This document shows, piece by piece, positions 3,867-64,000 of a DNA stretch of 64,000 nucleotides. The DNA lies in the IMG/VR virus record IMGVR_UViG_3300042298_003052, positions 1-64,000 of that record, one strand, 5' to 3'. This stretch comes from a virus. Below the pieces are notes generated by a model, which saw nothing but the letters and a program-made list of their open reading frames with translations, was not told the origin of the DNA and did not search any database. A program made the position numbers and the translations under genes. Positions within the stretch are counted from its first letter, which is position 1; each line of letters opens with the position of its first letter.

Positions 3867-4114
3867 TAGAAGTTACCTCCATCGGTAAGAGTTTCGGTGG
3901 TGTTCTGATCGGTGATAGTCAATTGTCCAGACTGCCAAACAGCGATGGAACCGTTAACAGGATTGGTGGTGGTAATTGCCAAGTTCGCTGGTAGCCCTAG
4001 GGCTGTTTTAAGCTGCGCTAGAGTGGCATAACCTAGACTACTGTCCGCGCTGGTGCCATTGCTGACAAGGGCATGGGTGGGGGTGGCAACTGCTTGCCGT
4101 AGTTGTTTTGTCAC
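3866..4114 (-). CDS. Small fibre-cluster protein (GTG start)
   Basis: An 82-residue protein. I choose the GTG at 4114-4112 over longer options because a strong GAGGAGG ribosome site lies eight bases upstream and because this GTG overlaps the stop (TGA, 4113-4111) of the previous gene, a coupling pattern used elsewhere in this genome. The sequence (QAVATPTHALVSNGTSADSS, then ATLAQLKTALGL) resembles the linker or repeat parts of fibre proteins. It may be a short fibre domain made as a separate chain. Function otherwise unknown. Confidence 0.55.
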   Translation of the reverse strand: MTKQLRQAVATPTHALVSNGTSADSSLGYATLAQLKTALGLPANLAITTTNPVNGSIAVWQSGQLTITDQNTTETLTDGGNF

Positions 4115-7832: not shown

Positions 7833-8531
7833 GTGGCAACATTGTATCTATATTTATCGCCAGAATTTCCCGCCGATTTAGCAGGTGAGTTAATAGAGTT
7901 AACCACAAAGCCTGGTAAAGATGATACTTATTGGTTGATGGGAACTTTACCTTATTGTGATATTCAACTTAAACCTACAGATAACAAAAAGGAATTACTT
8001 CACTATCGAGCAATATCAAGAATACAATGCACAATTAAACACGAATACAAAACCGGCTTGTATATGATATTGGATGGAGGTATATACATAGATGAGAAAG
8101 ACAGTTCTGCTAAAGCTGTAAGACCTTCATCCAACGGTGTATGGTTAAATGGGGAAAGACTGTTACCAAAAGATTGGGCAACGATAAACTATAACGATAG
8201 AATTCATTTTGGTAATGATAAAAAAATAATCGTAAAGCAATCGCCTTACGATACATCCAATGAAGATATATGGAATGATGAACAGTGGCGATGTGGTCCT
8301 TACAAAGAAGAACCTTGTTCACCTATAGAAGACGGTTCTCCTTTAATGAAACATGCTAAAGAAAACGCTTCACCATGGACTATTTTAAGTGATGTATTCA
8401 CATGGTTAAAAACGCCTAGCGCATCTTGGTTGGAACAAATCACAAAATTATTCCTTATAGGACTAGGAGTTTCTATTTTAATCTCTGATGAAATAGAACC
8501 TTTACTAAAATGGTTGTTCCAACAAAAATAA
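7833..8531 (+). CDS. FHA-domain membrane protein
   Basis: A 232-residue protein with a forkhead-associated fold, a phosphothreonine-binding module: LMGTLPYCDIQL (residues about 36-47), the conserved SRIQC loop (residues 63-67), SNGVWLNGERL (residues about 100-110) and IHFGNDKK. A C-terminal hydrophobic helix (LIGLGVSILI) would anchor it in the membrane with the FHA domain in the cytoplasm. Start is a GTG with no clear ribosome site. It is the only plus-strand gene between two minus-strand blocks, so it has its own promoter. FHA domains usually partner with Ser/Thr kinases; a kinase-like segment occurs in the tape measure protein, but no link is shown. Confidence 0.75.
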   Translation: MATLYLYLSPEFPADLAGELIELTTKPGKDDTYWLMGTLPYCDIQLKPTDNKKELLHYRAISRIQCTIKHEYKTGLYMILDGGIYIDEKDSSAKAVRPSSNGVWLNGERLLPKDWATINYNDRIHFGNDKKIIVKQSPYDTSNEDIWNDEQWRCGPYKEEPCSPIEDGSPLMKHAKENASPWTILSDVFTWLKTPSASWLEQITKLFLIGLGVSILISDEIEPLLKWLFQQK

Positions 8532-19231: not shown

Positions 19232-19278
19232 TCGCTACCGAAAGTTTTATTTATGGTTCTAGTTAGGACAATCTTTTT

Positions 19279-21711
19279 ATGAATTATCTTACACTTACAT
19301 TACCGCCGTCTTGGGGCGCAGAAGAATCCTACGATGTAGGATCTAATTTTGAGTCGCAACTTGGCGATGGTTATATAAGCACGTCTTCTTCCGTAGAACC
19401 TAGAGTGACGTGGACTATTCAGGCGATCGACACTAAGGATAAGATAGAAAACATATCTGATTTTTTATCCAATAGGAGTGGCGTAGAATCGTTTTATTGG
19501 AGTCCTAATGTAGAAGTATTACCATTACAACTATACTTTTGTACAGAATGGTCTATAACACCAATAGGATTTGATACTTTTAGTTTCTCAGCCACGTTTA
19601 TAAAAGATATCGAATCACCTTGTAGCGATCTTTCTGATCTTATAGATATAACTAAAATAAAATCTGATATTACGGCATCGAAAGTATTTATAGATAATAT
19701 ATCGACTATAGATGTAAATAGTCTTATAACTAATAACGCTACACCAAAAGAAGGCAACACTTGGTTACATGTATTTTATACATTTGCTACAGAAGTGTAT
19801 TTTGATTTTTTTAAGATTGAAGTAACCAAGCCTGATGGCATCAAGGAAACTGTATTAACTCAAAGTGGTGGTGGTCAAAATATTGGTGGTTACTATGGAA
19901 CTGGATCTCCGAACTCATGGACTAATTTTTCCTATGCCTTTCAAAAAAAAGGTAAATACAAAATAAAGTTCATACACGAAAAAGATGGTAATTTCAGTGT
20001 AGATAACGAAGTAATTGCGATCGATAGTGTAGTTATTGGAAATGCCAGTACTAGAGCTGGTATAACAACCACGTATCTAAATCAAGGTTTTGAGAATGGT
20101 GTTATACCTTCAGGGTGGGTAAACAACTGGTGGCAGATTACACAAAATCCAGTTTATTCTGGCAGTAACGCTATTAAATCAGCATTAACAAGTAATGATA
20201 GAAACGCTACAGCTTCTTTAGAATTTGAATTTGAGGTGTTTCCAGAAATATCTCTCCAAGCTCCATTACTAATATCAAACAACAATTTGGTTACTAAACA
20301 ATGGCATCAGGAAGCTGGTATAGACATACCTTGGCAAGCTGGTACATTATATGATCAAATAAACATGTCGATGGCGTTTCTTAATGGATATAAGTTATTA
20401 AACAATCAGACTTGGTTAGACAGATCATTAACACTTGCAGAAGCTATAGAAACTTATTATTACAATGGTAATAGTACACTACCACATTGGTTAATAAATG
20501 TAAGATCTCCAATTGGGTCTATACAGACCAATCAACTGTTTGAAGTATACTCACCCAGTAACAACGGTTACACAGCATTTCCTGCTTCCGTAACGGCTTT
20601 ATCAACGAATCAAGTTAATATCAAAGCTTCTTGGTTGCCTATGTTGTGGGAGCTTTACGATGAATTGTATTTGATAACTCAAAACAGTATATGGCAAACA
20701 AGATCCAATAAAATAAAAACTGGTTTTCAATCTATTATAAATTACTCGCCTAATACCGTTAACAGTGAGTTATTTACATCCTCTATAGTACGACAAAATA
20801 ACGTTGTAACTAATCGTTACGGCGATCGCTATTTGATCTCTCAGAATTTATGGGGATTGGTTGGTACGAATACTAATCAACTTTTAGCAACGATCGACAA
20901 TTTAGCTAAAGCTCAAATAAAATATGCAGAGGTCAATGATGATTTTGGGCCTTTTGCTTTTAGAATATCGCCTATTAATTCCCTATGGCAGTTAAATACT
21001 GTTACAGGGAATCTTGCTACTCTTATCCTTTATAGAAATCAAGCCAACCCTATGGAACAAGGGTCAGATTCAGGTTTCTCACAGGCTCAATTTGGTCTAT
21101 GGTTGGCTAAAGCTCTTTATTATTCAAATACTAAATTCGATAGTTTACAGAAACTTTTGATGGATTGGCTAAATTGGGTAGATGGTAAATGGTGTTCTAT
21201 AGAACCGGATTTTCCTCCTACACGATTCTCAGAAAAGAACACACCTTATCCAGATAGTGATCCAGCTACACAAGCATTAATAGGAGAGTCGGCTTTGTGG
21301 GCTAACCTTAATGGAGAAGATGCTGGCACTACTTTTAGATTGATTCTGAGAAGTTATGAATATCTACAAAAACAATTTGAAGGCGATCTGACCCGTATTA
21401 TGTATGGAAGTTGGTCTAAAGACAAACAAATTTACATTGGAGAGATGTTAAAAAATTATGATTCTAGAACTCATAGTTGTGTAATCAACTTTTTGACATT
21501 ATTGGCAATATATAAAGATCAATTGGTATATCCTAGTTGCACCGAGTCAATAAGAACACCTTTGTTACAACAAACGATGGAATCTTGCTGTGGTAGTCCT
21601 ACTATACCTTGTGGTATATACACTCTAACTGGCGAAGTTAAACCAACTGGTGAAAGTGTATTCAACAATTGTGCTATGATGGTACGATTAACTGTATCTA
21701 GCTATTATTAG
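19279..21711 (+). CDS. Tail-tip protein: M-like N-terminus with glycosidase-like barrel
   Basis: An 810-residue virion protein. Residues 1-115 resemble lambda gpM-type minor tail proteins (SNRSGVESFYWSPN, then FDTFSFSATF) and match the N-terminus of the 28916-30478 protein. Residues about 150-330 are beta-rich. Residues about 340-770 have paired helices with many Trp and Tyr (GIDIPWQAGTLYDQINMSMA, YNGNSTLPHWLINVRS, QFGLWLAKALYYS), the look of an (alpha/alpha)6 toroid glycosidase or lyase. This suggests a tail-borne depolymerase cutting host surface polysaccharide. The catalytic residues cannot be named with confidence. Confidence 0.6.
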   Translation: MNYLTLTLPPSWGAEESYDVGSNFESQLGDGYISTSSSVEPRVTWTIQAIDTKDKIENISDFLSNRSGVESFYWSPNVEVLPLQLYFCTEWSITPIGFDTFSFSATFIKDIESPCSDLSDLIDITKIKSDITASKVFIDNISTIDVNSLITNNATPKEGNTWLHVFYTFATEVYFDFFKIEVTKPDGIKETVLTQSGGGQNIGGYYGTGSPNSWTNFSYAFQKKGKYKIKFIHEKDGNFSVDNEVIAIDSVVIGNASTRAGITTTYLNQGFENGVIPSGWVNNWWQITQNPVYSGSNAIKSALTSNDRNATASLEFEFEVFPEISLQAPLLISNNNLVTKQWHQEAGIDIPWQAGTLYDQINMSMAFLNGYKLLNNQTWLDRSLTLAEAIETYYYNGNSTLPHWLINVRSPIGSIQTNQLFEVYSPSNNGYTAFPASVTALSTNQVNIKASWLPMLWELYDELYLITQNSIWQTRSNKIKTGFQSIINYSPNTVNSELFTSSIVRQNNVVTNRYGDRYLISQNLWGLVGTNTNQLLATIDNLAKAQIKYAEVNDDFGPFAFRISPINSLWQLNTVTGNLATLILYRNQANPMEQGSDSGFSQAQFGLWLAKALYYSNTKFDSLQKLLMDWLNWVDGKWCSIEPDFPPTRFSEKNTPYPDSDPATQALIGESALWANLNGEDAGTTFRLILRSYEYLQKQFEGDLTRIMYGSWSKDKQIYIGEMLKNYDSRTHSCVINFLTLLAIYKDQLVYPSCTESIRTPLLQQTMESCCGSPTIPCGIYTLTGEVKPTGESVFNNCAMMVRLTVSSYY

Positions 21712-49045: not shown

Positions 49046-49747
49046 ATGCAATATATGGGAAGCAAAAATAGATTGGCTAAACATCTGTTACCTGTAATGT
49101 TACCTTATCGAAAGAATTCTGAACAATGCTGGATAGAACCGTTTGTTGGTGGTGCCAATATGATCGATAAGATAGCGGGCGATCGTCTTGGTAATGATAA
49201 TCATCCTTTTCTGATCGCACTATTACAAGCTGTATCTCAAGGATACGATCCCCCTTCTGTTGTTACTAAAGATGAATACTATCGCGTAAAAAGTAATCCT
49301 AATGATTACCCTAGTGAATATGTTGGTTTCGTTGGATTTCTTTGTAGTTTTGGTTACAAATGGTGGGGAGGTTATGCTTTTAACAAAGAAGGTCGGAACT
49401 ATGCTGAAAAAGGGCGAAATGCTTTATTAAAACAAGCTCCTAATATTAAAGGCGTTAAGTTTCAATGTCAGAATTATCTAGAGTTAATCATACCTAATAA
49501 TAGTATCGTATACTGCGATCCTCCGTATCAGAAGAGTTCTGGTTATCATACCGATTTTGATCATCAGATATTTTGGGATTGGTGCAGATCGTTAGTACAA
49601 AATAACAATATCGTGTTTGTTAGTGAGTATTCAGCACCGGATGATTTTGTTTGTACTAAAGAAATTGTGTACGAAACCAATCTAAATAAAAATGGTAAAT
49701 CACCAAGAATCGAACGACTATTCCTACATAGGTCTCAGATCGCTTGA
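49046..49747 (+). CDS. Dam-type (D12 class) DNA adenine methyltransferase
   Basis: A 233-residue methylase. MQYMGSKNRLAKHLLPVM (N-terminal motif), WIEPFVGGANMIDKI (AdoMet-binding F-x-G-G, near residue 34) and VYCDPPYQKSSGY (catalytic D-P-P-Y, near 158) follow the Dam order. AAAGGAG is the ribosome site. The gene lies directly after the terminator, so it likely has its own promoter. Its thirteen-base convergent overlap with the EAL gene is unusual. Target sequence unknown; GATC is possible, since GATC is frequent here. Confidence 0.85.
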   Translation: MQYMGSKNRLAKHLLPVMLPYRKNSEQCWIEPFVGGANMIDKIAGDRLGNDNHPFLIALLQAVSQGYDPPSVVTKDEYYRVKSNPNDYPSEYVGFVGFLCSFGYKWWGGYAFNKEGRNYAEKGRNALLKQAPNIKGVKFQCQNYLELIIPNNSIVYCDPPYQKSSGYHTDFDHQIFWDWCRSLVQNNNIVFVSEYSAPDDFVCTKEIVYETNLNKNGKSPRIERLFLHRSQIA

Positions 49748-50814
49748 GGTTTACCGTATAGCCAACCTTGACCATATATAACACCATTATCGATTAACCA
49801 TGAAGCGTCTTCTTCCTTTTCTATACCTTCTGCTATTATTTCCATATTCATAGCTTTTGCCAACGTTATCACAGTTTTAACAACTGATTGATTGGTTATA
49901 TCTTTACTAACACCATCTATAAAGGAGCGATCTATTTTTATATAGTTAGCAGAAGATGTTTTTAGTGAACTCATATTACTTTCTCCTGTGCCAAAGTCAT
50001 CTAGTAATATGTCATGTCCTAATAATCGCAATCTAGATAATTTTGGAACAATAGGTTCTTCAAGAGCATATCGTTCAGTTATTTCCAACTGTAGACGACT
50101 TCTGTTTATATTGTACTTATCTATAATATGATTGAACTGACACTCGAACATAGCCGTACATACTGTAAGAGGAGACAAATTGATGGCTATGTGTAGATGC
50201 TTTTTAAGATCATCATTAGACCATTTTTTTAGAATAATACAAGCTTCCTCTACTACCATGTTACAGAAACTTACCATCAGTCCTGTAGTTTCTAGAACAG
50301 GTATAAAATCATTTGGATACCTAATGCGATCGCCGTCTAACCATCTTACCAAAGCCTCATAACCTACTATCGTCTTATTGTTTATATTAACTATAGGTTG
50401 AAGATAAAGACTAAATTGTTTGTCTATTAAAGCCTTTTCTACATCGTTCATTAACTTTTGACTGTCAGCGTTTAACATTATTCTTTTTATAAGTTCCAAT
50501 GTTATTATAAATTCAGACGAATTTACTTGTCGTATATCGAGATTATATTCTCCCTTTTCAGTGTAATATTTTCTACTTCTATAAATATTTTTATTCTTTA
50601 TGAAATCGTTGTATATATCGTATACACTATCAGAATCTATTTCAATATTAGAGTAAACACATTTTATAATGTTTTTGTTCACTCTATATAAACCAAAAGG
50701 TTTATCTATAGTGCTTATAATCGTCTTATAGTCTTTTATGTTTTTATAGAGCGAAAATAATATGGCGATCGCAAATAATATTAAAGACCCTTCTATACTA
50801 ATCAGCAACGGCAT
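49735..50814 (-). CDS. EAL-domain cyclic-di-GMP phosphodiesterase, membrane-anchored
   Basis: A 359-residue protein with an N-terminal membrane helix (LILFAIAILFSLY) and an EAL domain (residues about 125-359). Catalytic and metal-binding positions are all present: YEALVRW (E), INLSP (N), LEITE (E), LLDDFGTGES (DD), YIKIDRSFI (K), IIAEGIE (E), and YGQGWLYGKP (Q). The family cleaves c-di-GMP to pGpG. Residues 20-120 lack a known sensor. In a phage this could lower host c-di-GMP and change motility, aggregation or immunity signalling. It is convergent with the Dam-type gene and overlaps its upstream neighbour by seventeen bases. Confidence 0.85.
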   Translation of the reverse strand: MPLLISIEGSLILFAIAILFSLYKNIKDYKTIISTIDKPFGLYRVNKNIIKCVYSNIEIDSDSVYDIYNDFIKNKNIYRSRKYYTEKGEYNLDIRQVNSSEFIITLELIKRIMLNADSQKLMNDVEKALIDKQFSLYLQPIVNINNKTIVGYEALVRWLDGDRIRYPNDFIPVLETTGLMVSFCNMVVEEACIILKKWSNDDLKKHLHIAINLSPLTVCTAMFECQFNHIIDKYNINRSRLQLEITERYALEEPIVPKLSRLRLLGHDILLDDFGTGESNMSSLKTSSANYIKIDRSFIDGVSKDITNQSVVKTVITLAKAMNMEIIAEGIEKEEDASWLIDNGVIYGQGWLYGKPQAI

Positions 50815-51722: not shown

Positions 51723-52100
51723 ATGAAAAGATTAACAACGATCGCTCTTTTAACACTAATATTTGCGATCTTCCCACATCAATCTGTTAAGGCACAAGAA
51801 TCGTTTTTAAGATTAGATAACCACTGTGAAGGACAACTGTACTTTCACAAGACTGTTTGCAAAGAAGTTTACCAGGATTACATAATTTGGTACGTTCTCC
51901 AAGATAACACGCTAGTAGGTATTATTGTATTCGATGATGCTTATAGCCTAAATGTCATTGAATCAGGAGAAAACTCCTATGTCATATTCTCAAAGGAAAC
52001 CAGTCAAATCATTACACAATCAGAAAACGGTTTCAGTACGATCTCACCCTATCGTGAAACATTTGAATATATTTTAAGTGCGATCGCGTCAGTACAATAA
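51723..52100 (+). CDS. Secreted small protein
   Basis: A 125-residue protein with a clear signal peptide (KRLTTIALLTLIFAIF, then SVKA|QE at about residue 24). The mature part has two cysteines (DNHCEGQ and KTVCKEV) that could form a disulfide, and a beta-type rest. No family recognised. The start codon directly follows a terminator hairpin, so the gene may be transcribed only by read-through. Its end overlaps the convergent tape measure gene by twelve bases. Confidence 0.6.
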   Translation: MKRLTTIALLTLIFAIFPHQSVKAQESFLRLDNHCEGQLYFHKTVCKEVYQDYIIWYVLQDNTLVGIIVFDDAYSLNVIESGENSYVIFSKETSQIITQSENGFSTISPYRETFEYILSAIASVQ

Positions 52101-55100
52101 TCCGTTCGGTCGTTTCTGTTCAGTTAATACTTGGAATACTGCGGCTCTGACCTTCTGAGAAAGATCTCTTGCTGCCTTATTATCTTTCTCAGGATTATTA
52201 CCATCAGAGTTGATCGTGATGGGTACGGTAACAGACGTGCTACCCCCGCTAGGAGCCTTGATAGCAGGCGTACTAAACGAACCGCCTACGACACCCCCAT
52301 TCTTAAAGTTAAGCACGTTCTCGTCCACGCCATAGCGCTTAGCGATCGCTTGTTGCTGTCTGTTCAATACCCATTCTCCAGGTGATACCACAGCTAACCT
52401 AGCTTTTGGATTACCTTCGCGTTTTAATGCCTGTCCTATAGCTTCTGTAGAAGCTAACTTATCCAATGTTGACTGCGATCTTCCTATAACACCACCTTTT
52501 GCAAAGTTCTCTATACCTAAACCTGTATCAGTTTTTATAACACCACCATCTTTGAAGAACATCCCTAGTATCGTGGATAATAAAGACTGGAATACACCTC
52601 CTATACTGAATCCTCCTTTAGATACCGCTGTGCTACTAGAACCTGAAAATACACCCATCACAACAGAACCGAGTTGAGCCCCGCCGCGATCTGCTCCAGC
52701 TTCTATAGCACTTTGTATAGACTGAGCACCGTTTTCAAATGTAAGATCAAAACCACCTAAGTCAAATAAACCTTCAGAAATGGTACCTAAAGCGTTTGGT
52801 GTTTGTATGGATACAGCCGCTTGTTGTATTGCCTGAGCCCCTAATTGTAATGAAGATAAAACCATCTCACCACCTAATCTTAATGACGCTGAGGCTTGTT
52901 CTGCCCCTGTTGTTAACGTAACATCTTCTGTACTAGCACCGAATAAAGATTTTCCATATTCTGTTAGACTTGGATCTCGTATTTCACCAGTAGAAGGGAA
53001 TAAGTAAGAACTATAATCCATTGCGCCTTGTAACAGTGGATTATATCTAGGGGTCTGCATTAGTACATTAGGATCTTCTTCGGGCGATCGCGATCTGCTA
53101 GTTCCAAAAAGCATTTCTATAATACCGTTACCAGTATCACTAGATATTCCAGCAGCACCACCGAATATACCTGCAAACAGATTATTGGTTAGCATTTCTG
53201 CTGCCAAGTTCATCAGATTATCTATTAAACCGTTGACAAAATCGTTAAAGGCTTCTCCTACTGTTTTGGTACCTTTCATAAGATCGCTGAATAGTCCTTG
53301 AACTGGACCTCTTACGTTCTTTATGACATCGGGTAACATTGAGGCTTCTTGCCTTATCTGATCCATTTTGATGTCGTTTATCTTTGATAAGGATTCGCTC
53401 ATAGCTTTGAAACCCTCATCTGTGAGTTTCCCAGCATTTTTTAGTTTTTCTAATTCTAATATGGCATTTTGATAATCTAAGCGTTGCATATCCAACAAGA
53501 ATGGTAACCGCTCTTGTTTCATAGCTTCCGTTGGACTAGCACCAAATGCGCCTAGATAAGCGTCTTGTGCTCCCATTAAATCTGTTACTCCTCCAGGGCC
53601 AACAAGAGGATTTCTTGATTGTTCTATTTGATCGGCTCTAACTTGTAAAGCTTGTTCTAGCTCTAATGTTTGTAGTTTTAATTGGGCCGTTTCTTCTATT
53701 AATAAACGACTTCGTTCTCTAGTCTCCTCTGTTAGACCCTTACTACCTTCGTATAAATCGAATATTTGACTTTCTAAATCTTGTTGTATTTTAAGAGCTT
53801 CAATTTCATAAGACAGGTCTCTAGCGTTTCCTGCTTCCCCTGTTCTATTTAATAAAGGTGTAAGAGCTTCCACATTAGCAGCTCTTTGTTCTAACAAAAA
53901 TGATGAATTGTTAAGTCTTAATTGTTCAGTATTTCTATCAATATTGTAACCTAATATCTCTAACGCTAAAATTTGACGTTTAATAGATTCTGCTAATAGC
54001 TGGTCATAGCGATCTCTATCTAATCCGCTATTTAACTGTTCTTTTAAGCCAAATTGATACTCTTTCTCTTTTTGTATTATATCAGCAGCATCAGCTTGTT
54101 TTTCTAACTCTTCTGCCAGCGCCTGCTCTCCATCATTTCTTAACAATTCAGCCTGTTGTCTTAAATTTTCACCAGTTAGTTCAGTTAACTGATTAATAAA
54201 CTCCATATAGCGTCTTTCTTCTTCCATCTTGTATTCTTCTGAAATTTTTAGTAAAGCCTCTCCTTCCATAGCGGTTAGATCAGCTAAGTTCTTTCTAAGA
54301 ATATCTATAAGTGGTTGTTTCTGAGATATTATCTCTCTGAAACCCTCTTCAATTCGTCTTACATCTTCTTCTTTGGCTCCAGCCTCTATAAGTTGGTTGG
54401 GCATGGTTTCTAATAACTGTGTTACGGCATCTATGTCGTTTTGAGCATCTTCGATTTGTCGTTGTAATTCTATACGACGATCTTCTATATCTCTAGATGC
54501 CATATCGAGATCATATTCAAGTTGAATTTCTGGCGTCATCCTGAATTCTGGTATACTTTGATACTTGCGATCTCTGTCTTGTCTTTCTTGTTGTAGCTTA
54601 GCATCTTCCGTCCCTCTCTTAGCAGTTATTCCTTCTCGATTAACTTCAGAAAACATACTATCTATTTGAGCGTCGAATCTTTCATCTGCTAACGCTTTCA
54701 TTTGTTCAATCAATTTTATTTGATCGTTAGCGTTCTGTTGTAGCATGTTTACATACTTTTGATTTTCTGATAACAATTGGTTAGAACTTTGTGTATAACT
54801 ACTTACATCTAAAGTTGTAGCACTACTACTGGTTGTTGTCGGACGCGATCTGTTGATATAGCCTGTTACATTACTGATAGCTTGGGTAGTATATTTATTA
54901 TCTGGTCGTAATTCTTCTGCTCGTCTAAAATTGATCAATGCTGATTGGTAGTCCTTTTTCTCAGTCAGAGCATAACCTTCGCGCATGAATCTTTCAAATT
55001 GCTCTTTCTCTGACATGAGTTCATTCATACCGATGCCGCTATCACGAAGGAATTGTTCAGCTCGTTGACGGTGATCGCCTTGTCTGAATCTCGGCGCAGC

Positions 55101-58100
55101 GTTTCTTACGGTAGTTTGATTACTATCCTTACGATTCCAATAACTTTCTCCAGCTTGACCAGCTAATATTGCTGAATAGGCGTGTCGTATATCATGTTCA
55201 CCAGGTCTGAAACCGCGATCTAGCAAATATCTTTCTATAGCAGGCATTTGTTGAGCTATACTTTGTTGGGTATTGGTTCCATATTTACGTTGGTTATCAG
55301 GACTGAATTGGATCAAACCCTTATATAAATTATTATCACCTCCTCGTATGTTAGGGTTGAAAGATCCTGCTGATTCCCAAGACATAAGAGCGGCAAATTC
55401 TCTTGGATCTAATCCTAAACGTTGAGCTGCGGCTATCATAGCTTGTGCCCCAGCAGGGTCGCTTTGAACTCTTTCTGCGGTTCTTACCGTGCCACCCATA
55501 GGTATTCTACCCGGACCCATACTAGCCACTCTAGAGGCCACTGGGGCGTAGTTTCTAAACATCTCTACCCCAGACTGTTGAGGCGTGCTCTGAGCTGTTC
55601 TAGAGGCCGGTTGTGATATAGGATTAATATTGACATTTACGCCCTGTAAGTTACGTGCAACTCCACCACCGGCGTTCATAGCAGCTAACCACTGTTGAGC
55701 GTCTACGAACTGACCATTAACTTTCACCTTCATATCGAGATGGTGTTGTATTACTTCTCCAACGAGCTGTCCCATCGATACATTGGTGTTCTCTCCTATG
55801 CCTATACCTAAGGCTTTTTTAACAGATTCTAATTCTAAATGATTAAATTGCAAATCAATAGGTATGCCTTTAGCGTCCTGAGTCGTTATTCTCACTTGGA
55901 CAGCATTACCTCTATCACCCTTTTGTTCAGCTATGTCTATTACCCTAGCCGTACCAGAAAAAGGAGCTGCTACATCAGCACCTCTTCCTCCTCCTACTTT
56001 TGAATCCCAGTCTATACCAGCATGATATTCTTGTCGTCCATTTCGTGTTCTACCAGCCCTGAACGATTGTCCTTCAGTAGGTTTATAACTTACTAATGAC
56101 TCTATAGATTGCCCCATCAATGGAGAAGCTACGTTTCTACCATTTGTACCTTGACTACCAATAACACCTTGATCTATTTGAGGTATACTTAATGCAAATT
56201 GTTCATTTTGTCGAAGAGTATTGAATAATTGATTCATAACATCCATTTTCTGTTTTAAGAAATCAGATGTGCTTTTTAATTGTTCTCCTATGACATTGAT
56301 AAATCTTTCTAATATGTTCATCATGCCACTGAAGTGATCGGTTCTCAATTTACCCATAGTACGAGTTATCGTATTACTGGCATTAGCAACTTTGCGATCG
56401 TTTTCAAATTCCTTAAAACTGTGAGCGATTTCTTCAGTTTGTTGACCCACCTCTATCAACATATCTTCCAGTTGACGACCCATTTGCCATAATTGTTCTT
56501 CTAACTGTCTTTTAGTAGTTTCTAGTTCTGCTACTAATTGATCTGTTTCTAGTCCCGTTTGTTCAAATTTTTGTCGTACTTCTACTAAATTTGTGAGGGT
56601 CTTGCTTAAAGAAGAATCTTCTCCTATATTATCTATGGCAGCTTGTATATCAGCCGCCGTAGCATTCATTGCTAAATTAGCGTTTTCTAATGCTTTTATG
56701 TATTCAGGATCATAAGCAATAGTTTCTAGTTTTTGTAAAGAATCTCGATTTATAGCTATTTTTTCAGAGGTCATTTGTTGTTGAACAAGATTCTGTGTAC
56801 CTTCTAACAAACCTGAATTACCAGGAGCAACAGATCTCATCAAAAGAGCGTTCTTTTGTGCTGATCTCATTTCCAAATTATAATAGGCGTTTTCCATTTC
56901 TGCGTTAACAAGTCTAAATCCTCTAGCCAATAGATCAAGTCTGGTTACTGTATTTGCTATACCGGAATTTATTTTATCAATAAGCGATTTAGTAAGTTTT
57001 AAATCTGATTCAAGTGTTGCAATATTGCCCTGCAATGATTCTCTACGAATATTATCTTCTTCAGAATCTCCCAGTCTTGCTAGTTCTTCTTTTCTTAACT
57101 TAATAGCAGATTTGATATTCTCTTCTGATAACTGTAGGTTTGCTAGTTGTTTACCAACGGGGATATATAATTTTTCTCTTTCTGCTATCAGATTATTTAT
57201 CTGTTCGTTTAAGTCTCTTTGTTTTTCTACATCTTCCCTAGAGGTTCCTTGGAGTTCTTGTTGAGCACTCTGTAACCGCACATCCAGATCTATTATTTCT
57301 TGTAATTGTTGACCAGGTTTATTACCAGGATACAAAGTGGTCCTGGCCTCTTCATATATTTTACCTGAATAAGATTGCAGATCGTTTATAGCTATGTCTG
57401 CCTGTTCAGCTTTCACATCCTCCCATGTCCTGCTTAAATCTAAACCTATATTTTTCAAACCTCCTAAAGCTAAACCTATTGGGTCTGTATAATCTCGAAT
57501 GTCGTTTCCATCAGTTATGTTACCGATAAAACTTTGTGTTCCTCTTTCAAATATACGTGAAGCCTTATCCCCTATTAGACCACCAAAGAACGTATCTTCA
57601 AGTAAAGATTCTCCACTGATTAATCGTTCTAATCCTGAACTTATCCCTATACCATCTTTAAACGCTTCAAAAAACTTTTTAGCGGAATTACTTATATCGA
57701 CTATCTGTTTAATTCCTGTTACGGATTTCAATACGTTTCCGTATGATTCTCTGCTACCATCTATATTACTAACCGATTCAATAATATCTCCGACGTAACC
57801 TCCTAGTCCACCACCAGTAAATAATTCTTTGATGGCTGTTACACCTCCAGACTCCTTAAACACCTTAAAACTGGGTTGTTCATTAAACTCTTTTGTTTTT
57901 TGACGAGCATCTTCTAATGTTTTTGTATAATCTTCCCACGCTTTTTTATTTGAGTCAGCAAGATCCTTAGCACCTCCGGAAGCGTCTCCGAAACCTTTAC
58001 TGAAAATCTTAAACACGTCCGTGGCCACAGTTATGACAGCAAACCACGTTAAGAAACTCTTACCAAATGTTATTAATTCTTGCTTCATTCTAGTAAACAA

Positions 58101-61100
58101 ACCAGAAAACGATTCGCCAATCAACGCGATCGTTTGGTTCATTCCTGCAAATTTAACAAAAAATTTGGCTAGTTCTTGTACGAGGGTAGCACTTATTGTT
58201 ACCAACAAAGCGGTAAACACGACGCTAAGTGCTACAACATTTTCTCTTAGTATTTGAATACCTTTGGTTGCTATGTTAAGTCCGACAACTCGAATAGGGA
58301 TTGTGGTGTTACCATATCCTTGTTGGAATAACGTAATTTCATTATTTAATTTATTTATGGCCGTTTGGGCGCTTCGTGCGCTACCTGACACACCCATAGC
58401 GGTTTCAGCACTTAGTTGTTGTGCAAATTTAGGTAATAGATCTTCGGCCATAACTTCTCCGGCTTGCATCATTTTACCTAATTCTTGTGTAGTAACACCC
58501 ATAGCCCGCGCTGCTACAGATATAGACCCCGGTAAAGCTTCTGCTAATTGACCTCTTAGTTCTTCCGCAGAAACTACTGTCTTGTCCATCATCTGACTCA
58601 GTGCAGTGAAAGCTTGCTGTTGTTCCTCTGGAGTCATTTGATAAACTACAGCAGCTTGTGATATAGCTGAAAATATTTGACGAGTGCCTTCGCCTTCTAG
58701 TCGTGTACCTTGAGCACTAGCTCCTAATTGGGCGAAACCTTGCATACTTGATTTCAAGTCTCCTCCCAAACTTATAACTTTATTCCTTATCAAATCTATG
58801 TTTTTAGCCCCTTCGCTCGCTGATCCAGAGACAAAATTAATTGTCGTGGCCATGTTTTCGAGTTCTACAGCAGTTTGAAAAGCGGCTTCTTCAAATGAAA
58901 ACAATGTTCCTACGAGTGGTACTACAATATAATTGAAAAACAAAAACCCTTTGGTGATGCTCATCATAGCAGGAATATTTTGAGACAATCCCTCAAATAC
59001 TTCACCCAACGATCTACCTAATTTTGGTACAAACGTTGCCATGTTTTTCATAGATTCCATAGAATCCAACATGAATGCGTATGCAGGCCCTATAACAGGT
59101 ATTTCAGCTTCCGGGCGTTCTCCTGAAACACTGAATGGCATAAAAGATTCTTCTGGTGGTGTTTTTGCCCATTCTTTTATGTCATTTACGGTTTTTGTTT
59201 TAAGACTTTTTATACTTTCCCTAACATAGTTGATACCATCAGATATACCGTTAGATATACCTTCACTTATAAACCTACCTATCTTTATTGCCCATTCAGG
59301 AGGGCTTTTTATATCAAATGTGCTATGTGTTATATCTATAACAGCTTCTGCCATATTCATGGCGGCATTAGTCGCTTCTCTGCTACTATTATTTATGCCT
59401 ATTGCTATACCAGACCCTAACTCAGATCCTATATTTTTACTAGCGGGTAATATATTTTCTGTTTTCGTGTTGTTATAACGCTGATAAGATCTTATTATAT
59501 CCCGAGTATATTGATGAGAGAATCCATAGGCGTCTCTTTCTAGTTTATTGATGTAATGTGGATTTATATCAATACCTTGTTCTTTTGCAGATTTTTTTGC
59601 AAGTTCTACAGATCCTGCTATATTACGAGCATATTCGCGATCCGATTCTCTATTATATGACGGTGTTAAAAGAAGATTTCTTGAGTAAGGATCATTTATC
59701 TTTTGAAATCCAACTTGTGCGGCATGTCGTATCTCATGTACTATTGTATCCATTGCTTCAAACAAGGAAATTATATCTTCAGTTATATTAGAATATTTTT
59801 TGTTTACTGTTTCGTAAGCTAAATCTAACTCGTCGTTATAATCATTATAAATATCATCACTAGTGTTGTTATTTAAACGTTTATATACCTCTCTCACTTC
59901 ATCTTCAATAACTTTGAGACTAATAGGTATATCAAGACCTTTTATATCATGTAAGGATTCCAACGCCTCTTCGGTTTCATCATCCAAAAAGATTGTGTTG
60001 TATTCTGGTAAATAGGCTCCTCCTGCTCTAGTTCCTAATAATTGCATAGATGCATTTTTAGCTGTGGGCATCTCTTTTACTTCTACATCGGAAAGCGCTG
60101 CTATTTCTGTAACTAGTTCTTCAAACACTTTTCTTGCTTTAGGCGTAATGTCGTCTAAAGTATCTATAATTTCTCCTATATTTCTAGTTACTTCGTTAGA
60201 CATGTCTTCGTCAAATGAATCTTTTGTATTTCGATCAACGGACCATAACGGTTGTATTTTATTGTTTTTAACTTCTTCTGCTTTTACATCGATCGTGTTT
60301 GTATGTGTTTTTAACAAATAAGCTTGTTGATAAGATTGACTTTGACGTAAACGATCGAATCTCATAACAGGCCCAGAATTTCCGGGTTCTAAACCTTTTA
60401 TTGTCTCACCTAGTTCGTGTACTCGTGCGATAAGAGACGGGGTTATACCTTCTTCTAGATAACGAGTAAGTATTTCTCGTATCTCGTTAGATTCATCTAG
60501 ATAATGAGGACTGAAATGCCCTTTCACATTAGGTATAATAGCCTCTTTTTGTCCAGTAAATCTCTTTAACGGATCTCCTTCTCCAATTAAAGATATTACG
60601 TCTGATTTAATAGCTTGAAATGCTCCTAGTAAGGGAGTACCCATACTTAAAGCTTCTGAAATAATTCCTATATTTTTAAGTATTTCTTGGGCTTCTCTAA
60701 CTATAAAACCTCCAGCAGAATGTCCTACAAAACCTATTTCAACATCTGGACGTTCTTGTTTAACGGCATAGGCTTGTTTAGCAAGACGGAGAGCTTCTTC
60801 ATTAATACCCTTTCTAACAGCCTTCATGGGCATAATGATCGCATCCATTACGACCCTTGTCAAACCTACATCATTTAAGGTTCCAGAAACATCAAAGTTT
60901 TTATTCTCGAAAGGGATCGTGTGAGTCCCTTGAGGGATCATCGGTTTTAGTTTGTCTGTTATTTCGTTACTGATTCTACCTTTTGTGCCAGTAAAACCAG
61001 ATGATACAAATATAATCTTTTTAGCATCGGCAGGGATTTCATGAACGACAGGATGAATGTCAGAATCAGGAGGTTCAGTTAGAACTCGTCGAGCGTTAGA

Positions 61101-63998
61101 ACGTACATCTTCTTTGTACTTGGTGACAATAGTTTCATTGGGATAATTAACAATTCTTCCTACTGCCGTTCTTGCGCTCTGAACGGCTTCTGAAGTGTTC
61201 TCTAACTGACCGGCAAGAGTTAATGCCTCATTAATAGAATCTCTCAATATTGTCAACTCGTCTTTTATTACTGACATATCAAAGGCTTTTCTTAAATTGC
61301 CCTGATACATATCAGCCATCAAGTATAGATCTTCTGCAAGCTCTTTCAAAATTGAGCTTATGTTCAAAACTTTTTTAACTGCATCAGAATTTGATTTAAT
61401 ACCTTTAATCAAACCTGCTACAACCATTTTACCAAAATACTCAGTTACTTTGGAAGGACTTCTAGTTTGAAGACCCTTTGCCATCGGGTCAATAATTCCA
61501 GTCTCAACAAGACGGGTAGCCTCAGCTTTTAAAGCATTAAAACGATCGCTGAATCCGACAGGATATCCATCTATAGTTTCTTGACCTAAACTTCTAGTTA
61601 AATCAGGACGTTCTATTTCTCTAGTATTGATTTTCTCATTAGCTCTATTTTTGGCTTGAGTAGCCTGACCTTTAGCAGCTCGTGCTAAGTTTGTAAATGG
61701 TGTAGTAGCACGGTCCCCTAAAACTTTTTGTAAATCGTCTATAGCTTTCCAAGCTTCGTCCGCAGTTTTAATAATTTCAGCAGCAGCTATTTTTTGTTCT
61801 TCTCTAGAATATCGATTTTTTTTATTCTCCACTATACGACGAAGATCAGCAAAATCTTCACTGATCTTTTTAACCATTTTTTGGTAGTCAGGCGGCGGTT
61901 GAGCAGCAGTTAACTGACGAACTTGTTGTTGGGATAATGAAGGTAACTCAGCAAAGTTACTAAAATCTTGAATAATTTCAGCATCAATAATGTCAGCATC
62001 TTGAGATCGAATATCGTTTAGAAAACTAGCTAATTCTCTAAGTTTATTCTCTATCTTAACGATCTGAGATTTAAGATTTGCTAACTGATTAGGTGCTAAA
62101 GGTTTCATACGATCTTGTGGTGATATTGCGACGATCGCCTCATTAACCTCTGTTAATAATCTATTGACATATCCTTGATCATTACCAGTATCATCTCCGG
62201 CTAACAACTTTATTTTTTGAATGATCGATTCATCTGGTTCACTAGAAACTAGAGCCGTCTGTATACTAGTAATCATATCTTTGGCCGCACTTAATTTTTT
62301 ACGGGATCCTTCTATAAATTCATTGGCAGCAGGCTGTGCGCCAGATAGTAGTTTGCCAGCAGATTTAGTTAGTTGAGCAAGAGCTGTTGCGGCAGAGATA
62401 CTTTTTTGAGCTAATTCAGCAATTGCCGCCGCTCCATCTTCAATACCAAGTGCGGAAGCTCTAGCAATTTGTTCTGGACCAATATCAGATATCTTTTCGA
62501 TAATGGGAGCATTAGCATCAAGCGAATCAGGATCTCCAGGTACTCTACGCATTATTCTATTTACTGCCGCCACAAGACGTGTTTCTGCCGCGATGGCCAT
62601 CGCTTCACCTGTTGACTCAGCGATATTAGTAAGACCCTCGCCAACGCCTTGCAAGAAAGATATGGCCATTTCAGAACCAATTGCAACGGCTTCCTCCGTA
62701 GACACCGTTACAGATGATCTTACCTCTCTAAGATCCGGTAGAGGTGTAGGTGGAGGTGATATGAGATTAGCGACGTAAGATTGAGTACCTAGAGTTGCTT
62801 GAGATTGTCTTGTTTTACGCTGATTCCGTTCCGCGACACGCTGAGACGTTTCAGGATCTAATCTAAGATTAGGTTGTACCTGATTGTTTATAAAATCAAC
62901 TAGCGTTGATGATATCTTCGTAGGATCAGGTGCGCGATCGAATGTACGAAGACCACCCAGTTCACCACCCTCTTCATAACCTTGAGCGACTAAGGATTCT
63001 AAATCTAATCCTTCGATCAGTTCAAAACGTCCGAGTTCTTTAGCTATAACTCGTCTAATTCCTTCCCATGCTTTGCGAATACCTTCTTTACGATCTTCTT
63101 CAATCGCTTTGGCCCATTCTTCCAGAGCCTTTTCTTGTTCTTTTGCTGACAATTTTTCAAACTCAGGCATTTTATCGGGTTTGATTATACTACGTCCATA
63201 ATCGATAGGAACCACCTTTCCTTCGTCTGATACAAAAACATTACCTGGATGATAGTCTCCGTGGGTCACACCTTTTTCATGAAGTGCTCTCAACGATGCT
63301 CCAGCCTGTTTAGCATACGCTGATACGTCATCTTTTGTCATATCTTTATTAGCAAGGTAGTCTCGACCTTCTTGACCTGCTATTGCTCGTTGAATAATAA
63401 AATCATCGCCCGACGCAAGAACGTCTGGAGCGACACCTTTAGCAATTTCCATAGCCTGAGCCTCACTAGCCATGCTGACAGCATTTTTAGCTAGTTTGTA
63501 AACAGCATCTTTGTTAGCATTTATAAAAGCGATACCTTTTGCCCCCTGTCCTAATATATATGCCATATTAGGATCTATTTTAGCTGATGGCTTACCCATA
63601 TCCTCAAGGGTCTTATTCATACCGCTAAGACGTTCCATCCAAGGTTCTGTAGCAGGTTGAGTATATTTCTTGGTTTGCCACTTTGTTTTAGGTGCATCAG
63701 GATCTCTAGGTGTTGGTCCTCGCATCCCGGTGGGAGGACCAACACCCTCTTTATAAGCTTTATTAAATATATCTTGTATATTTATCCCTTCAAGCAAAGG
63801 CATTTTTCCTTCTTTTACTAGCTTTAAAAGAAGCTCCATTGTTTTTTCGGTTCCTTCAGGAACCTTTGCCAAAATTCGCATAAAAGCTTCTTCGATTCTT
63901 TCTGGTGCTCTTTCGGCATCAGCTTTTATTTGTTCTTTAGAAGCGTTTACCTTGGCAGCACCTAAATCGATAGTTTTCATGCTTCCATCTTCCATCAC
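52089..63998 (-). CDS. Giant multi-domain tape measure protein (5' partial)
   Basis: At least 3969 residues, possibly longer because the frame reaches the window edge (TTG and GTG/ATG at 64000-63993). It sets tail length and is ejected with DNA. Core tape-measure domain: residues about 1700-1890 (TTINFVSGSASEGAKNIDLI; AISQAAVVYQMTPEEQ; LRGQLAEALPGS), with hydrophobic helices near 1690, 1925 and 1985. Two S-P-[SP]-x ... G-x-x-x-G-I motifs near residues 870 and 1600 match other tape measure proteins. Added parts: kinase-like (140-300), lipase-like (990-1180), HExxH (about 1421), M23-like (2640-2760), transglycosylase-like (2835-2945), TPR (3000-3040). Rest is coiled coil. Confidence 0.85.
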   Translation of the reverse strand: MMEDGSMKTIDLGAAKVNASKEQIKADAERAPERIEEAFMRILAKVPEGTEKTMELLLKLVKEGKMPLLEGINIQDIFNKAYKEGVGPPTGMRGPTPRDPDAPKTKWQTKKYTQPATEPWMERLSGMNKTLEDMGKPSAKIDPNMAYILGQGAKGIAFINANKDAVYKLAKNAVSMASEAQAMEIAKGVAPDVLASGDDFIIQRAIAGQEGRDYLANKDMTKDDVSAYAKQAGASLRALHEKGVTHGDYHPGNVFVSDEGKVVPIDYGRSIIKPDKMPEFEKLSAKEQEKALEEWAKAIEEDRKEGIRKAWEGIRRVIAKELGRFELIEGLDLESLVAQGYEEGGELGGLRTFDRAPDPTKISSTLVDFINNQVQPNLRLDPETSQRVAERNQRKTRQSQATLGTQSYVANLISPPPTPLPDLREVRSSVTVSTEEAVAIGSEMAISFLQGVGEGLTNIAESTGEAMAIAAETRLVAAVNRIMRRVPGDPDSLDANAPIIEKISDIGPEQIARASALGIEDGAAAIAELAQKSISAATALAQLTKSAGKLLSGAQPAANEFIEGSRKKLSAAKDMITSIQTALVSSEPDESIIQKIKLLAGDDTGNDQGYVNRLLTEVNEAIVAISPQDRMKPLAPNQLANLKSQIVKIENKLRELASFLNDIRSQDADIIDAEIIQDFSNFAELPSLSQQQVRQLTAAQPPPDYQKMVKKISEDFADLRRIVENKKNRYSREEQKIAAAEIIKTADEAWKAIDDLQKVLGDRATTPFTNLARAAKGQATQAKNRANEKINTREIERPDLTRSLGQETIDGYPVGFSDRFNALKAEATRLVETGIIDPMAKGLQTRSPSKVTEYFGKMVVAGLIKGIKSNSDAVKKVLNISSILKELAEDLYLMADMYQGNLRKAFDMSVIKDELTILRDSINEALTLAGQLENTSEAVQSARTAVGRIVNYPNETIVTKYKEDVRSNARRVLTEPPDSDIHPVVHEIPADAKKIIFVSSGFTGTKGRISNEITDKLKPMIPQGTHTIPFENKNFDVSGTLNDVGLTRVVMDAIIMPMKAVRKGINEEALRLAKQAYAVKQERPDVEIGFVGHSAGGFIVREAQEILKNIGIISEALSMGTPLLGAFQAIKSDVISLIGEGDPLKRFTGQKEAIIPNVKGHFSPHYLDESNEIREILTRYLEEGITPSLIARVHELGETIKGLEPGNSGPVMRFDRLRQSQSYQQAYLLKTHTNTIDVKAEEVKNNKIQPLWSVDRNTKDSFDEDMSNEVTRNIGEIIDTLDDITPKARKVFEELVTEIAALSDVEVKEMPTAKNASMQLLGTRAGGAYLPEYNTIFLDDETEEALESLHDIKGLDIPISLKVIEDEVREVYKRLNNNTSDDIYNDYNDELDLAYETVNKKYSNITEDIISLFEAMDTIVHEIRHAAQVGFQKINDPYSRNLLLTPSYNRESDREYARNIAGSVELAKKSAKEQGIDINPHYINKLERDAYGFSHQYTRDIIRSYQRYNNTKTENILPASKNIGSELGSGIAIGINNSSREATNAAMNMAEAVIDITHSTFDIKSPPEWAIKIGRFISEGISNGISDGINYVRESIKSLKTKTVNDIKEWAKTPPEESFMPFSVSGERPEAEIPVIGPAYAFMLDSMESMKNMATFVPKLGRSLGEVFEGLSQNIPAMMSITKGFLFFNYIVVPLVGTLFSFEEAAFQTAVELENMATTINFVSGSASEGAKNIDLIRNKVISLGGDLKSSMQGFAQLGASAQGTRLEGEGTRQIFSAISQAAVVYQMTPEEQQQAFTALSQMMDKTVVSAEELRGQLAEALPGSISVAARAMGVTTQELGKMMQAGEVMAEDLLPKFAQQLSAETAMGVSGSARSAQTAINKLNNEITLFQQGYGNTTIPIRVVGLNIATKGIQILRENVVALSVVFTALLVTISATLVQELAKFFVKFAGMNQTIALIGESFSGLFTRMKQELITFGKSFLTWFAVITVATDVFKIFSKGFGDASGGAKDLADSNKKAWEDYTKTLEDARQKTKEFNEQPSFKVFKESGGVTAIKELFTGGGLGGYVGDIIESVSNIDGSRESYGNVLKSVTGIKQIVDISNSAKKFFEAFKDGIGISSGLERLISGESLLEDTFFGGLIGDKASRIFERGTQSFIGNITDGNDIRDYTDPIGLALGGLKNIGLDLSRTWEDVKAEQADIAINDLQSYSGKIYEEARTTLYPGNKPGQQLQEIIDLDVRLQSAQQELQGTSREDVEKQRDLNEQINNLIAEREKLYIPVGKQLANLQLSEENIKSAIKLRKEELARLGDSEEDNIRRESLQGNIATLESDLKLTKSLIDKINSGIANTVTRLDLLARGFRLVNAEMENAYYNLEMRSAQKNALLMRSVAPGNSGLLEGTQNLVQQQMTSEKIAINRDSLQKLETIAYDPEYIKALENANLAMNATAADIQAAIDNIGEDSSLSKTLTNLVEVRQKFEQTGLETDQLVAELETTKRQLEEQLWQMGRQLEDMLIEVGQQTEEIAHSFKEFENDRKVANASNTITRTMGKLRTDHFSGMMNILERFINVIGEQLKSTSDFLKQKMDVMNQLFNTLRQNEQFALSIPQIDQGVIGSQGTNGRNVASPLMGQSIESLVSYKPTEGQSFRAGRTRNGRQEYHAGIDWDSKVGGGRGADVAAPFSGTARVIDIAEQKGDRGNAVQVRITTQDAKGIPIDLQFNHLELESVKKALGIGIGENTNVSMGQLVGEVIQHHLDMKVKVNGQFVDAQQWLAAMNAGGGVARNLQGVNVNINPISQPASRTAQSTPQQSGVEMFRNYAPVASRVASMGPGRIPMGGTVRTAERVQSDPAGAQAMIAAAQRLGLDPREFAALMSWESAGSFNPNIRGGDNNLYKGLIQFSPDNQRKYGTNTQQSIAQQMPAIERYLLDRGFRPGEHDIRHAYSAILAGQAGESYWNRKDSNQTTVRNAAPRFRQGDHRQRAEQFLRDSGIGMNELMSEKEQFERFMREGYALTEKKDYQSALINFRRAEELRPDNKYTTQAISNVTGYINRSRPTTTSSSATTLDVSSYTQSSNQLLSENQKYVNMLQQNANDQIKLIEQMKALADERFDAQIDSMFSEVNREGITAKRGTEDAKLQQERQDRDRKYQSIPEFRMTPEIQLEYDLDMASRDIEDRRIELQRQIEDAQNDIDAVTQLLETMPNQLIEAGAKEEDVRRIEEGFREIISQKQPLIDILRKNLADLTAMEGEALLKISEEYKMEEERRYMEFINQLTELTGENLRQQAELLRNDGEQALAEELEKQADAADIIQKEKEYQFGLKEQLNSGLDRDRYDQLLAESIKRQILALEILGYNIDRNTEQLRLNNSSFLLEQRAANVEALTPLLNRTGEAGNARDLSYEIEALKIQQDLESQIFDLYEGSKGLTEETRERSRLLIEETAQLKLQTLELEQALQVRADQIEQSRNPLVGPGGVTDLMGAQDAYLGAFGASPTEAMKQERLPFLLDMQRLDYQNAILELEKLKNAGKLTDEGFKAMSESLSKINDIKMDQIRQEASMLPDVIKNVRGPVQGLFSDLMKGTKTVGEAFNDFVNGLIDNLMNLAAEMLTNNLFAGIFGGAAGISSDTGNGIIEMLFGTSRSRSPEEDPNVLMQTPRYNPLLQGAMDYSSYLFPSTGEIRDPSLTEYGKSLFGASTEDVTLTTGAEQASASLRLGGEMVLSSLQLGAQAIQQAAVSIQTPNALGTISEGLFDLGGFDLTFENGAQSIQSAIEAGADRGGAQLGSVVMGVFSGSSSTAVSKGGFSIGGVFQSLLSTILGMFFKDGGVIKTDTGLGIENFAKGGVIGRSQSTLDKLASTEAIGQALKREGNPKARLAVVSPGEWVLNRQQQAIAKRYGVDENVLNFKNGGVVGGSFSTPAIKAPSGGSTSVTVPITINSDGNNPEKDNKAARDLSQKVRAAVFQVLTEQKRPNGLLY
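55100..56040 (-). other. M23-like and lytic-transglycosylase-like domains in the tape measure protein
   Basis: The M23-like part has HAGIDWDS (near residue 2657) and ends in QHHLDMKV (55737-55745), with FNHLELES between. The transglycosylase-like part, about 100 residues later, has LMSWESAGSFNP (Glu near residue 2874) and LYKGLIQFSPDNQRKYG. Such pairs in tape measure proteins open the cell wall during DNA entry. Confidence 0.7.
59724..59738 (-). other. HExxH zinc-peptidase-like motif in the tape measure protein
   Basis: HEIRH (near residue 1421) in DTIVHEIRHAAQVGFQ matches H-E-x-x-H with a following helix, as in metallopeptidases. LLGTRAGGAYLPEYNTIFLDDE upstream resembles the substrate-strand of these enzymes. 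The third ligand is not certain. Confidence 0.55.
60480..61020 (-). other. Lipase-like alpha/beta hydrolase domain in the tape measure protein
   Basis: Residues about 990-1180. KKIIFVSSGFTGTKG is the first strand with the oxyanion-hole-type turn, and VEIGFVGHSAGGFIVREA (DNA 60708-60725 for G-H-S-A-G-G) is the nucleophile elbow. LSMGTPLLGAF follows as in lipases, and GHFSPHYLDE offers the catalytic histidine. Substrate could be membrane lipid. Confidence 0.7.
63130..63580 (-). other. Kinase-like domain in the tape measure protein
   Basis: Residues about 140-300. ILGQGAKGIAFI is a glycine-rich loop; AVYKLAK provides the lysine (near 166); GVTHGDYHPGN is the catalytic loop with H-G-D-x-H-x-x-N (DNA 63239-63262); VVPIDYGRS is the D-[YF]-G metal-binding motif (63195-63203). 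This order is that of atypical Ser/Thr or small-molecule kinases (RIO/Bud32/aminoglycoside type). Confidence 0.75.
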
Positions 63999-64000
63999 AA

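What the first reader, a model, noticed from the sequence alone, without database searches (positions are those of the whole stretch)
63130..63580. Kinase-like domain at the N-terminus of a tape measure protein
Gly loop, Lys, H-G-D-x-H-x-x-N and D-Y-G occur in the right order in about 160 residues. Tape measure proteins are ejected with the DNA in some phages, so this could be a virion-delivered kinase acting on host targets in the first minutes. An FHA (phosphothreonine-binding) protein is encoded at 7833.
Basis: partly seen in the sequence, partly recalled or inferred. Interest (0 to 1): 0.8.

Follow-up and report, generated by a model that had tools for sequence, protein, structure and literature searches.

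The report
Twin kinases inside phage tape measure
A virus of (probably filamentous) cyanobacteria carries two intact kinase-like enzymes side by side inside its giant 5,072-residue tail "tape measure" protein, in a stretch that near-identical viruses have swapped for other enzymes, which suggests that the tail protein doubles as an exchangeable package of enzymes shot into the host; delivery and activity are inferred, not shown.

Summary
The window cuts the gene: the full ORF (record 67307-52089, minus strand) is a 5,072-aa tape measure protein (TMP), and the reported domain lies at aa ~1236-1450, not at the N-terminus. A second, homologous kinase-like domain (aa ~950-1190) lies just upstream, across the window edge. 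They are ~30% identical, yet both keep every catalytic motif; curated Pfam kinase-clan cut-offs are passed and a kin2 model matches kinases.

The pair sits in a discrete ~590-aa insertion: a colinear relative (G299) has ~62 aa there. Phages 96-98% identical in DNA on both flanks have TMP codons ~13/91 to ~3607 replaced by alleles carrying other domains (hydrolase, HExxH peptidase), with the same right-hand breakpoint in four contigs. No other TMP found here carries kinases.

Best explanation: an exchangeable enzyme-cargo zone in the head-proximal half of the TMP, with the kinases ejected into the host to phosphorylate unknown targets. The anatomy is shown; ejection, activity and substrate are inferred. 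It resembles injected "polyvalent proteins" and Tme/Sle1 effectors, but Kinase-PolyVal was tested and not met. The FHA protein is real; its link is unsupported.

The parts
52089..64000 (-). In-window part of the giant tape measure protein gene; the whole ORF is record 67307-52089, 5,072 aa
   Evidence: TMP_3 and PHROG tape-measure matches
62754..64000 (-). In-window part of the ~590-aa kinase insertion (aa ~930-1518; record 62754-64520), absent from the colinear TMP of G299 (62 aa instead)
   Evidence: BLASTP colinearity; pairwise alignment
62958..63602 (-). Kinase-like domain 2 (kin2, aa ~1236-1450): GQGAKG, K, E, HGDYHPGN, DYG
   Evidence: model pLDDT 71.7 matching kinases
63738..64000 (-). 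C-terminal in-window part of kinase-like domain 1 (kin1, aa ~950-1190; DLG at 63954-63971; the rest lies outside at record 64001-64460)
63709..63746 (.). 16-nt-arm inverted repeat (hairpin) in the coding linker between kin1 and kin2; GC-rich linker (48.6% versus 38.3% for the gene)
60345..61070 (-). Alpha/beta-hydrolase-like domain 2 (GHSAGG, aa ~2080-2321), shared with TMPs of G299, L095, G298/G293 and with CL131 gp047/gp048
   Evidence: Pfam matches on the isolated domain are below cut-off
59448..60344 (-). HExxH (HEIRH at 59724-59738) putative metallopeptidase, aa ~2322-2620; absent from G299
   Evidence: (DUF6782 below cut-off)
58326..58886 (-). TMP_3 core (aa 2808-2994), flanked by two hydrophobic segments (aa 2787-2805 and 3019-3047)
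55608..56120 (-). M23/LytM-like endopeptidase region (weak)
   Evidence: PHROG 7767 E 3.8e-4; no Pfam M23 match
55260..55439 (-). SLT transglycosylase-like domain; missing or divergent in G293 and G294
   Evidence: (21.5 bits, cut-off 21.3)
56486..64000 (.). In-window part of the allele-swapped TMP segment (56486 to 67035/67270) that near-identical phages replace
   Evidence: blastn mosaic

Best explanation
The TMP of this cyanophage is a fused ruler and cargo protein. Its C-terminal ~2,100-2,300 residues (pore/core, cell-wall hydrolases, baseplate end) are nearly constant in length among close relatives. Its N-terminal ~1,600-2,750 residues form a head-proximal cargo zone that recombination replaces as a block. 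In this virus the zone carries two hydrolase-like domains, two tandem kinase-like domains and an HExxH peptidase-like domain. On infection the TMP leaves through the tail tip: the C-terminal wall hydrolases first, then the membrane core, and the kinases with the trailing N-terminal half. In the ATP-containing host cytoplasm the kinases would phosphorylate host targets (protein more likely than small molecule), possibly after release by the HExxH peptidase. Shown: domains, intact motifs, insertion, allele swap. Inferred: ejection into the cytoplasm, activity, substrate, peptidase release.
For: Two kinase-clan domains with complete catalytic sets despite ~30% mutual identity, so selection has probably kept catalysis in both. 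Predicted fold of kin2: N-lobe pLDDT ~90, all listed PDB matches are kinases, E 6e-8. Single 5,072-aa frame in two contigs that differ at one base over ~20 kb, so not a chimera. Discrete insertion relative to G299. Contigs with 96-98% DNA identity on both flanks, including the capsid and upstream tail genes, have a different TMP block with other enzymes; common breakpoint 56486 in G293, G298, G294 and G295; GESGGG hydrolase or HELQH peptidase instead. The N-side varies 1,583-2,747 aa while core-to-C-terminus varies 2,159-2,325 aa in that group. TMP orientation (N-terminus at neck, C-terminus at baseplate, three copies, probably ejected) is known for phage 80alpha (PMC11661146). TMP-related proteins with enzymatic C-terminal domains are effectors in contractile injection systems (PMC11126660, PMC13277306).
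Against: No virion proteomics or activity data. Kinases are known from this one virus only (G000 and its near-copy G297), so between-phage conservation of the catalytic residues could not be tested. The kin1 model without outside relatives was poor (pLDDT 43), and the kin2 model used relatives that were found through the HGDYHPGN motif. About three TMP copies per particle would mean few enzyme molecules. Globular domains must pass a narrow tail lumen. Whether the N-terminal side ends in the cytoplasm or the periplasm is unknown, and a kinase needs ATP.
Confidence: 0.5

Rival explanations
1. The domains are small-molecule phosphotransferases of APH/choline-kinase type that modify a metabolite or second messenger rather than proteins; delivery may be the same.
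For: kin2 passes the APH cut-off (27.5 bits, 23.2) and the relatives found by motif are mostly single-domain APH-like proteins; short C-lobe (~75 aa after DxG); best viral fold match is an APH-like cyanophage protein.
Against: kin1 scores best with protein kinases (Pkinase 36.3 bits, above cut-off) and only 16.2 bits with APH; kin2 scores slightly higher with ABC1 and Pkinase than with APH. The label of the match is 'putative serine/threonine kinase'.
Confidence: 0.25
2. The kinases act in the producing cell during tail assembly, for example by phosphorylating the TMP or tail proteins, and are passengers afterwards.
For: The TMP is a structural protein made in the ATP-rich producing cell; TMPs can be fragmented or cleaved inside the tail (PMC11661146).
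Against: Near-identical phages with the same tail genes do without any kinase, so assembly does not need it.
Confidence: 0.12
3. The block swap reflects adaptation of the TMP to host entry (inner-membrane partner, superinfection exclusion); the kinase pair is a neutral or decaying passenger with no catalytic role.
For: The swapped block includes the TMP_3 core and the hydrophobic segments as well as the enzymes, as an entry-determinant swap would.
Against: Both kinases keep Gly loop, Lys, Glu, HGD..N and DxG despite ~30% identity; composition is not that of a recent passenger; unrelated enzymes recur in the same zone.
Confidence: 0.13

Closest known systems
Polyvalent proteins of phages and conjugative elements (Iyer et al. 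2017, PMC5512222)
   Same: Large multidomain protein encoded among virion genes that joins unrelated enzymes, including kinases and HExxH peptidases; predicted to be injected; shuffling of cassettes was suggested there for a kinase-bearing locus.
   Different: The carrier here is the tail tape measure protein (the paper never uses 'tape measure'); the kinases do not match Kinase-PolyVal and have no insert between His and Asp; the peptidase has no MPTase-PolyVal match at E up to 1.
Tme and Sle1 tape-measure-related effectors of contractile injection systems (PMC11126660, PMC13277306)
   Same: TMP-like protein with an attached, exchangeable functional domain; domains differ between relatives.
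   Different: Those are effectors of bacterial contractile particles with a C-terminal domain; here it is the TMP of a DNA-carrying virus with the cargo N-terminal to the core, and the enzymes are kinases and hydrolases.
TMPs and TMP-adjacent proteins of cyanophages Cr-LKS4, CrV-01T and vB_AphaS-CL131
   Same: Giant TMPs (2,987 and 4,416 aa) with similar N- and C-termini and core; CL131 gp047/gp048, next to its TMP, carry related hydrolase domains.
   Different: No kinase domain found in them; in CL131 the hydrolases are separate genes.
Injected T4 Alt and phage T7 protein kinase (as described in PMC5512222)
   Same: Phage enzymes that modify host proteins early; Alt is packaged and ejected, T7 kinase phosphorylates host proteins.
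   Different: Alt is an ADP-ribosyltransferase in the head; T7 kinase is made after infection (own knowledge). Neither is part of a TMP.

Membership tests
Protein kinase-like (PKL) superfamily | Gly loop, Lys, alpha-C Glu, HxD..N, DxG in order | tested here: met
   Both domains
Protein kinase-like (PKL) superfamily | Curated family cut-offs passed | tested here: met
   kin1: Pkinase, ABC1, PK_Tyr_Ser-Thr, RIO1 over cut-off; kin2: ABC1, APH, RIO1 over cut-off
Protein kinase-like (PKL) superfamily | Kinase fold | tested here: met
   kin2 only: pLDDT 71.7, kinase matches E 6e-8, TM about 0.45; kin1 model too poor to judge
Protein kinase-like (PKL) superfamily | Phosphotransfer activity | not testable with these tools
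   needs a biochemical assay
Canonical Ser/Thr/Tyr protein kinase (ePK) | Activation segment with APE motif and full C-lobe | tested here: inconclusive
   kin1 has APE about 20 residues after DLG but the Pkinase alignment stops before it (position 154 of 263); kin2 has none; C-lobe short
Kinase-PolyVal (PF18762) | Match to the family profile | tested here: not met
   no match at E up to 10
Kinase-PolyVal (PF18762) | Insert between catalytic His and Asp | tested here: not met
   HGD without insert in both domains; the conserved Gln of the last N-lobe strand is present in both
APH phosphotransferase (PF01636) | Match above cut-off | tested here: inconclusive
   kin2 27.5 bits (cut-off 23.2) passes, kin1 16.2 does not
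Phage tape measure protein | TMP family match and position among tail genes | tested here: met
   TMP_3 81.4 bits, PHROG tape-measure families; tail-tube-like gene upstream, below Pfam cut-off
Phage tape measure protein | Sets tail length; ejected with DNA | not testable with these tools
   needs virion and infection experiments
Polyvalent protein | Several unrelated enzymatic domains in one virion-associated polypeptide | tested here: met
   (by sequence; some domains are below family cut-offs)
Polyvalent protein | Injected into the host | not testable with these tools
   no virion data
Tme/Sle1 CIS effectors | Part of a contractile injection system | not tested
   No sheath search was made; the record is a capsid-bearing phage

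The most novel reading that the evidence does not exclude
A group of cyanobacterial siphophages uses the head-proximal half of the tape measure protein as a polymorphic, block-swapped effector platform (hydrolases, peptidases and, here, tandem kinases), so the tail ruler itself is a delivery vehicle for exchangeable host-modifying enzymes, including a virion-delivered protein kinase.
Probability: 0.4. Interest if true: 0.8.

Novelty: new variant of a known kind. Interest (0 to 1): 0.62.

Why it matters
TMPs are usually treated as rulers with at most a wall hydrolase. If the head-proximal half is an exchangeable enzyme cargo, tailed phages have a second route, besides head-packaged ejection proteins, to put enzymes into a host within the first minutes. 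A kinase delivered that way would be unusual for a phage; the literature searches here found no earlier example. It also gives a natural source for the TMP-derived effectors of contractile injection systems and a ready experiment: close relatives differ mainly in this block.

Tried and rejected
Literature: 'tape measure protein' with 'kinase domain' gave no TMP-kinase fusion; in phage MinS1 the kinase protein and the TMP are separate ORFs. Homologues of the kinase region: none in phages with kin1; weak matches with kin2 (best E 9e-4, S-CBWM1 and S-TIM5 stand-alone kinases); none in plasmids; none at E <= 1e-8 in 292 genomes of the phylum of G001, where only five candidates per genome were scored, so this is weak. 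In viral contigs only the near-identical G297. Genome contigs gave only APH-like proteins. Kinase HMMs over 44 TMP loci found only this virus (the next-best score, 10 bits in L099, has no catalytic motif). Final hydrolase-guided scan: no new kinase TMP. Orphan copies of an alternative cassette elsewhere in this genome: none outside the TMP. Other canonical kinases in the 139-kb record: none beyond the two. The idea that the FHA protein is a partner was dropped for lack of evidence. kin1 structure from two sequences: too poor to use. A first pairwise alignment with free end gaps was misleading and was redone.
Full report
What is there. The window is bases 1-64000 of a 139,448-base virus record. 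The reported domain is encoded on the minus strand in an ORF that runs off the window; taking the neighbouring sequence shows one uninterrupted ORF, record 67307-52089, of 5,072 aa. It starts like a tape measure protein, contains the TMP_3 core (81.4 bits) and matches many PHROG tape-measure families. The reported kinase domain (kin2) lies at aa ~1236-1450 and not at the N-terminus. A second kinase-like domain (kin1, aa ~950-1190) lies immediately upstream, mostly outside the window.

Is it a kinase? Both domains carry the Gly loop, Lys, alpha-C Glu, HGDYH[PA]GN and D[YL]G in order. Isolated, kin1 passes the curated cut-offs of Pkinase, ABC1, PK_Tyr_Ser-Thr and RIO1; kin2 passes ABC1, APH and RIO1 and is just under Pkinase. 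They align with each other over 166 residues at 28% identity, E 2e-20 for the single comparison (33% in the multiple alignment). Solved kinases are weak but consistent sequence matches. A model of kin2 has mean pLDDT 71.7 with an N-lobe near 90 and matches kinases with E 6e-8, although TM-scores are modest (~0.45) because the C-lobe is poorly modelled. The alignment used for it contained APH-like relatives found through the catalytic motif, so this is not fully independent; a kin1 model with only kin2 as companion was too poor to use. The C-lobe is short, so the exact kinase family stays open.

Not an assembly error. A second contig (G297, IMGVR_UViG_3300042521_002893, 89 kb) has the same frame with one base difference over about 20 kb.

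A discrete insertion. The TMP of G299 (capsid protein 50% identical) is colinear with this TMP at 39-47% identity, but aa ~929-1518, both kinases, correspond to about 62 aa there, and the HExxH region (2322-2620) is missing.

A block that is swapped. Five contigs from other metagenomes have a capsid protein 99-100% identical. Four of them (G293, G298, G294, G295) were compared at DNA level: they are 96-98% identical upstream to codon ~13 or ~91 of the TMP, and again from 56486 (codon ~3607) downstream, apart from an indel around the SLT domain and lower identity (~94%) in parts of G294 and G295. In between the TMP is replaced by sequence that shares only 25-35% identity in the core; the 56486 breakpoint is common to all four. 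G296 carries a TMP like that of G295. The alternatives carry a GESGGG hydrolase (G293, G298) or an HELQH peptidase (G294, G295, G296) and no kinase. Among the complete alleles the core-to-C-terminus length is 2,159-2,325 aa while the N-side varies from 1,583 to 2,747 aa. This suggests, without proving it, that the N-terminal half is cargo rather than ruler.

Wider family. Forty-four viral loci share this type of TMP N-terminus. Related hydrolase and HExxH domains recur in several of them and in a TMP ORF of a large bacterial genome (G447), but kinases occur only in this virus. The nearest named phages by capsid are Cylindrospermopsis phages Cr-LKS4 and CrV-01T, whose TMPs lack kinases; hence the suggested cyanobacterial host. 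Aphanizomenon phage CL131 has separate genes next to its TMP with several copies of the same hydrolase type.

How it may work. In phage 80alpha three TMP copies run with the N-terminus at the neck and the C-terminus at the baseplate, and are probably ejected with the DNA (PMC11661146). On that plan the wall-hydrolase-like domains (aa ~3750-4020) leave first, then the core with two hydrophobic segments, then the kinases. Kinases need ATP, so the cytoplasm is the likely place of action; which side of the membrane the N-terminal half reaches is not known. The HExxH domain could release the cargo, as proposed for polyvalent proteins (PMC5512222), but this is inference.

Known relatives of the idea. 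Polyvalent proteins combine unrelated enzymes, including kinases and HExxH peptidases, in injected proteins, and cassette shuffling has been suggested for them (PMC5512222). The paper does not mention tape measure proteins, and its kinase family (Kinase-PolyVal) does not match here. TMP-related effectors with attached and exchangeable functional domains exist in contractile injection systems (PMC11126660, PMC13277306). The present case is therefore a new variant of a known theme, with a new carrier and a different kinase type.

The FHA protein is real, but nothing ties it to the kinases; it is encoded 55 kb away near endolysin-like and tail-like genes.

Noticed in passing
window 49735-50814 (-): EAL-domain (c-di-GMP phosphodiesterase-like) gene two genes downstream of the TMP, 200 bits to PF00563; its region is also present in G298 and G293 at 96-98% DNA identity.
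   Followed up: partly
window 63709-63746: Inverted repeat with 16-nt arms in the GC-rich coding linker between the two kinase domains; could mark a past insertion or recombination site.
   Followed up: no
L018:17764-24188 (Aphanizomenon phage CL131 gp047/gp048): TMP-adjacent proteins with several alpha/beta-hydrolase (GHSAG) copies related to the TMP hydrolase, alternating with a Cys motif CKxGKxCGDxCIP.
   Followed up: partly
window 54843-55522: The SLT transglycosylase-like part of the TMP is an indel: contiguous in G298, missing or divergent in G293 and G294.
   Followed up: partly
L138 (G447:C7:2433500-2446500): A large bacterial genome (family of G396, chosen via a Cyanobacteria MAG) holds a 3,175-aa TMP ORF with a related hydrolase (GYSYGG) and HEARH motif before the core, without kinases; perhaps a prophage.
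   Followed up: partly
window 7833-8531 (+): FHA-domain protein on the opposite strand to its neighbours, between a tail-fibre-like ORF and endolysin/peptidase genes.
   Followed up: partly
L004:17711-18994 and 18987-19856 (+): By eye: a MurA/EPSP-synthase-like enzyme followed by a family-2 glycosyltransferase-like protein in the phage genome; not tested.
   Followed up: no
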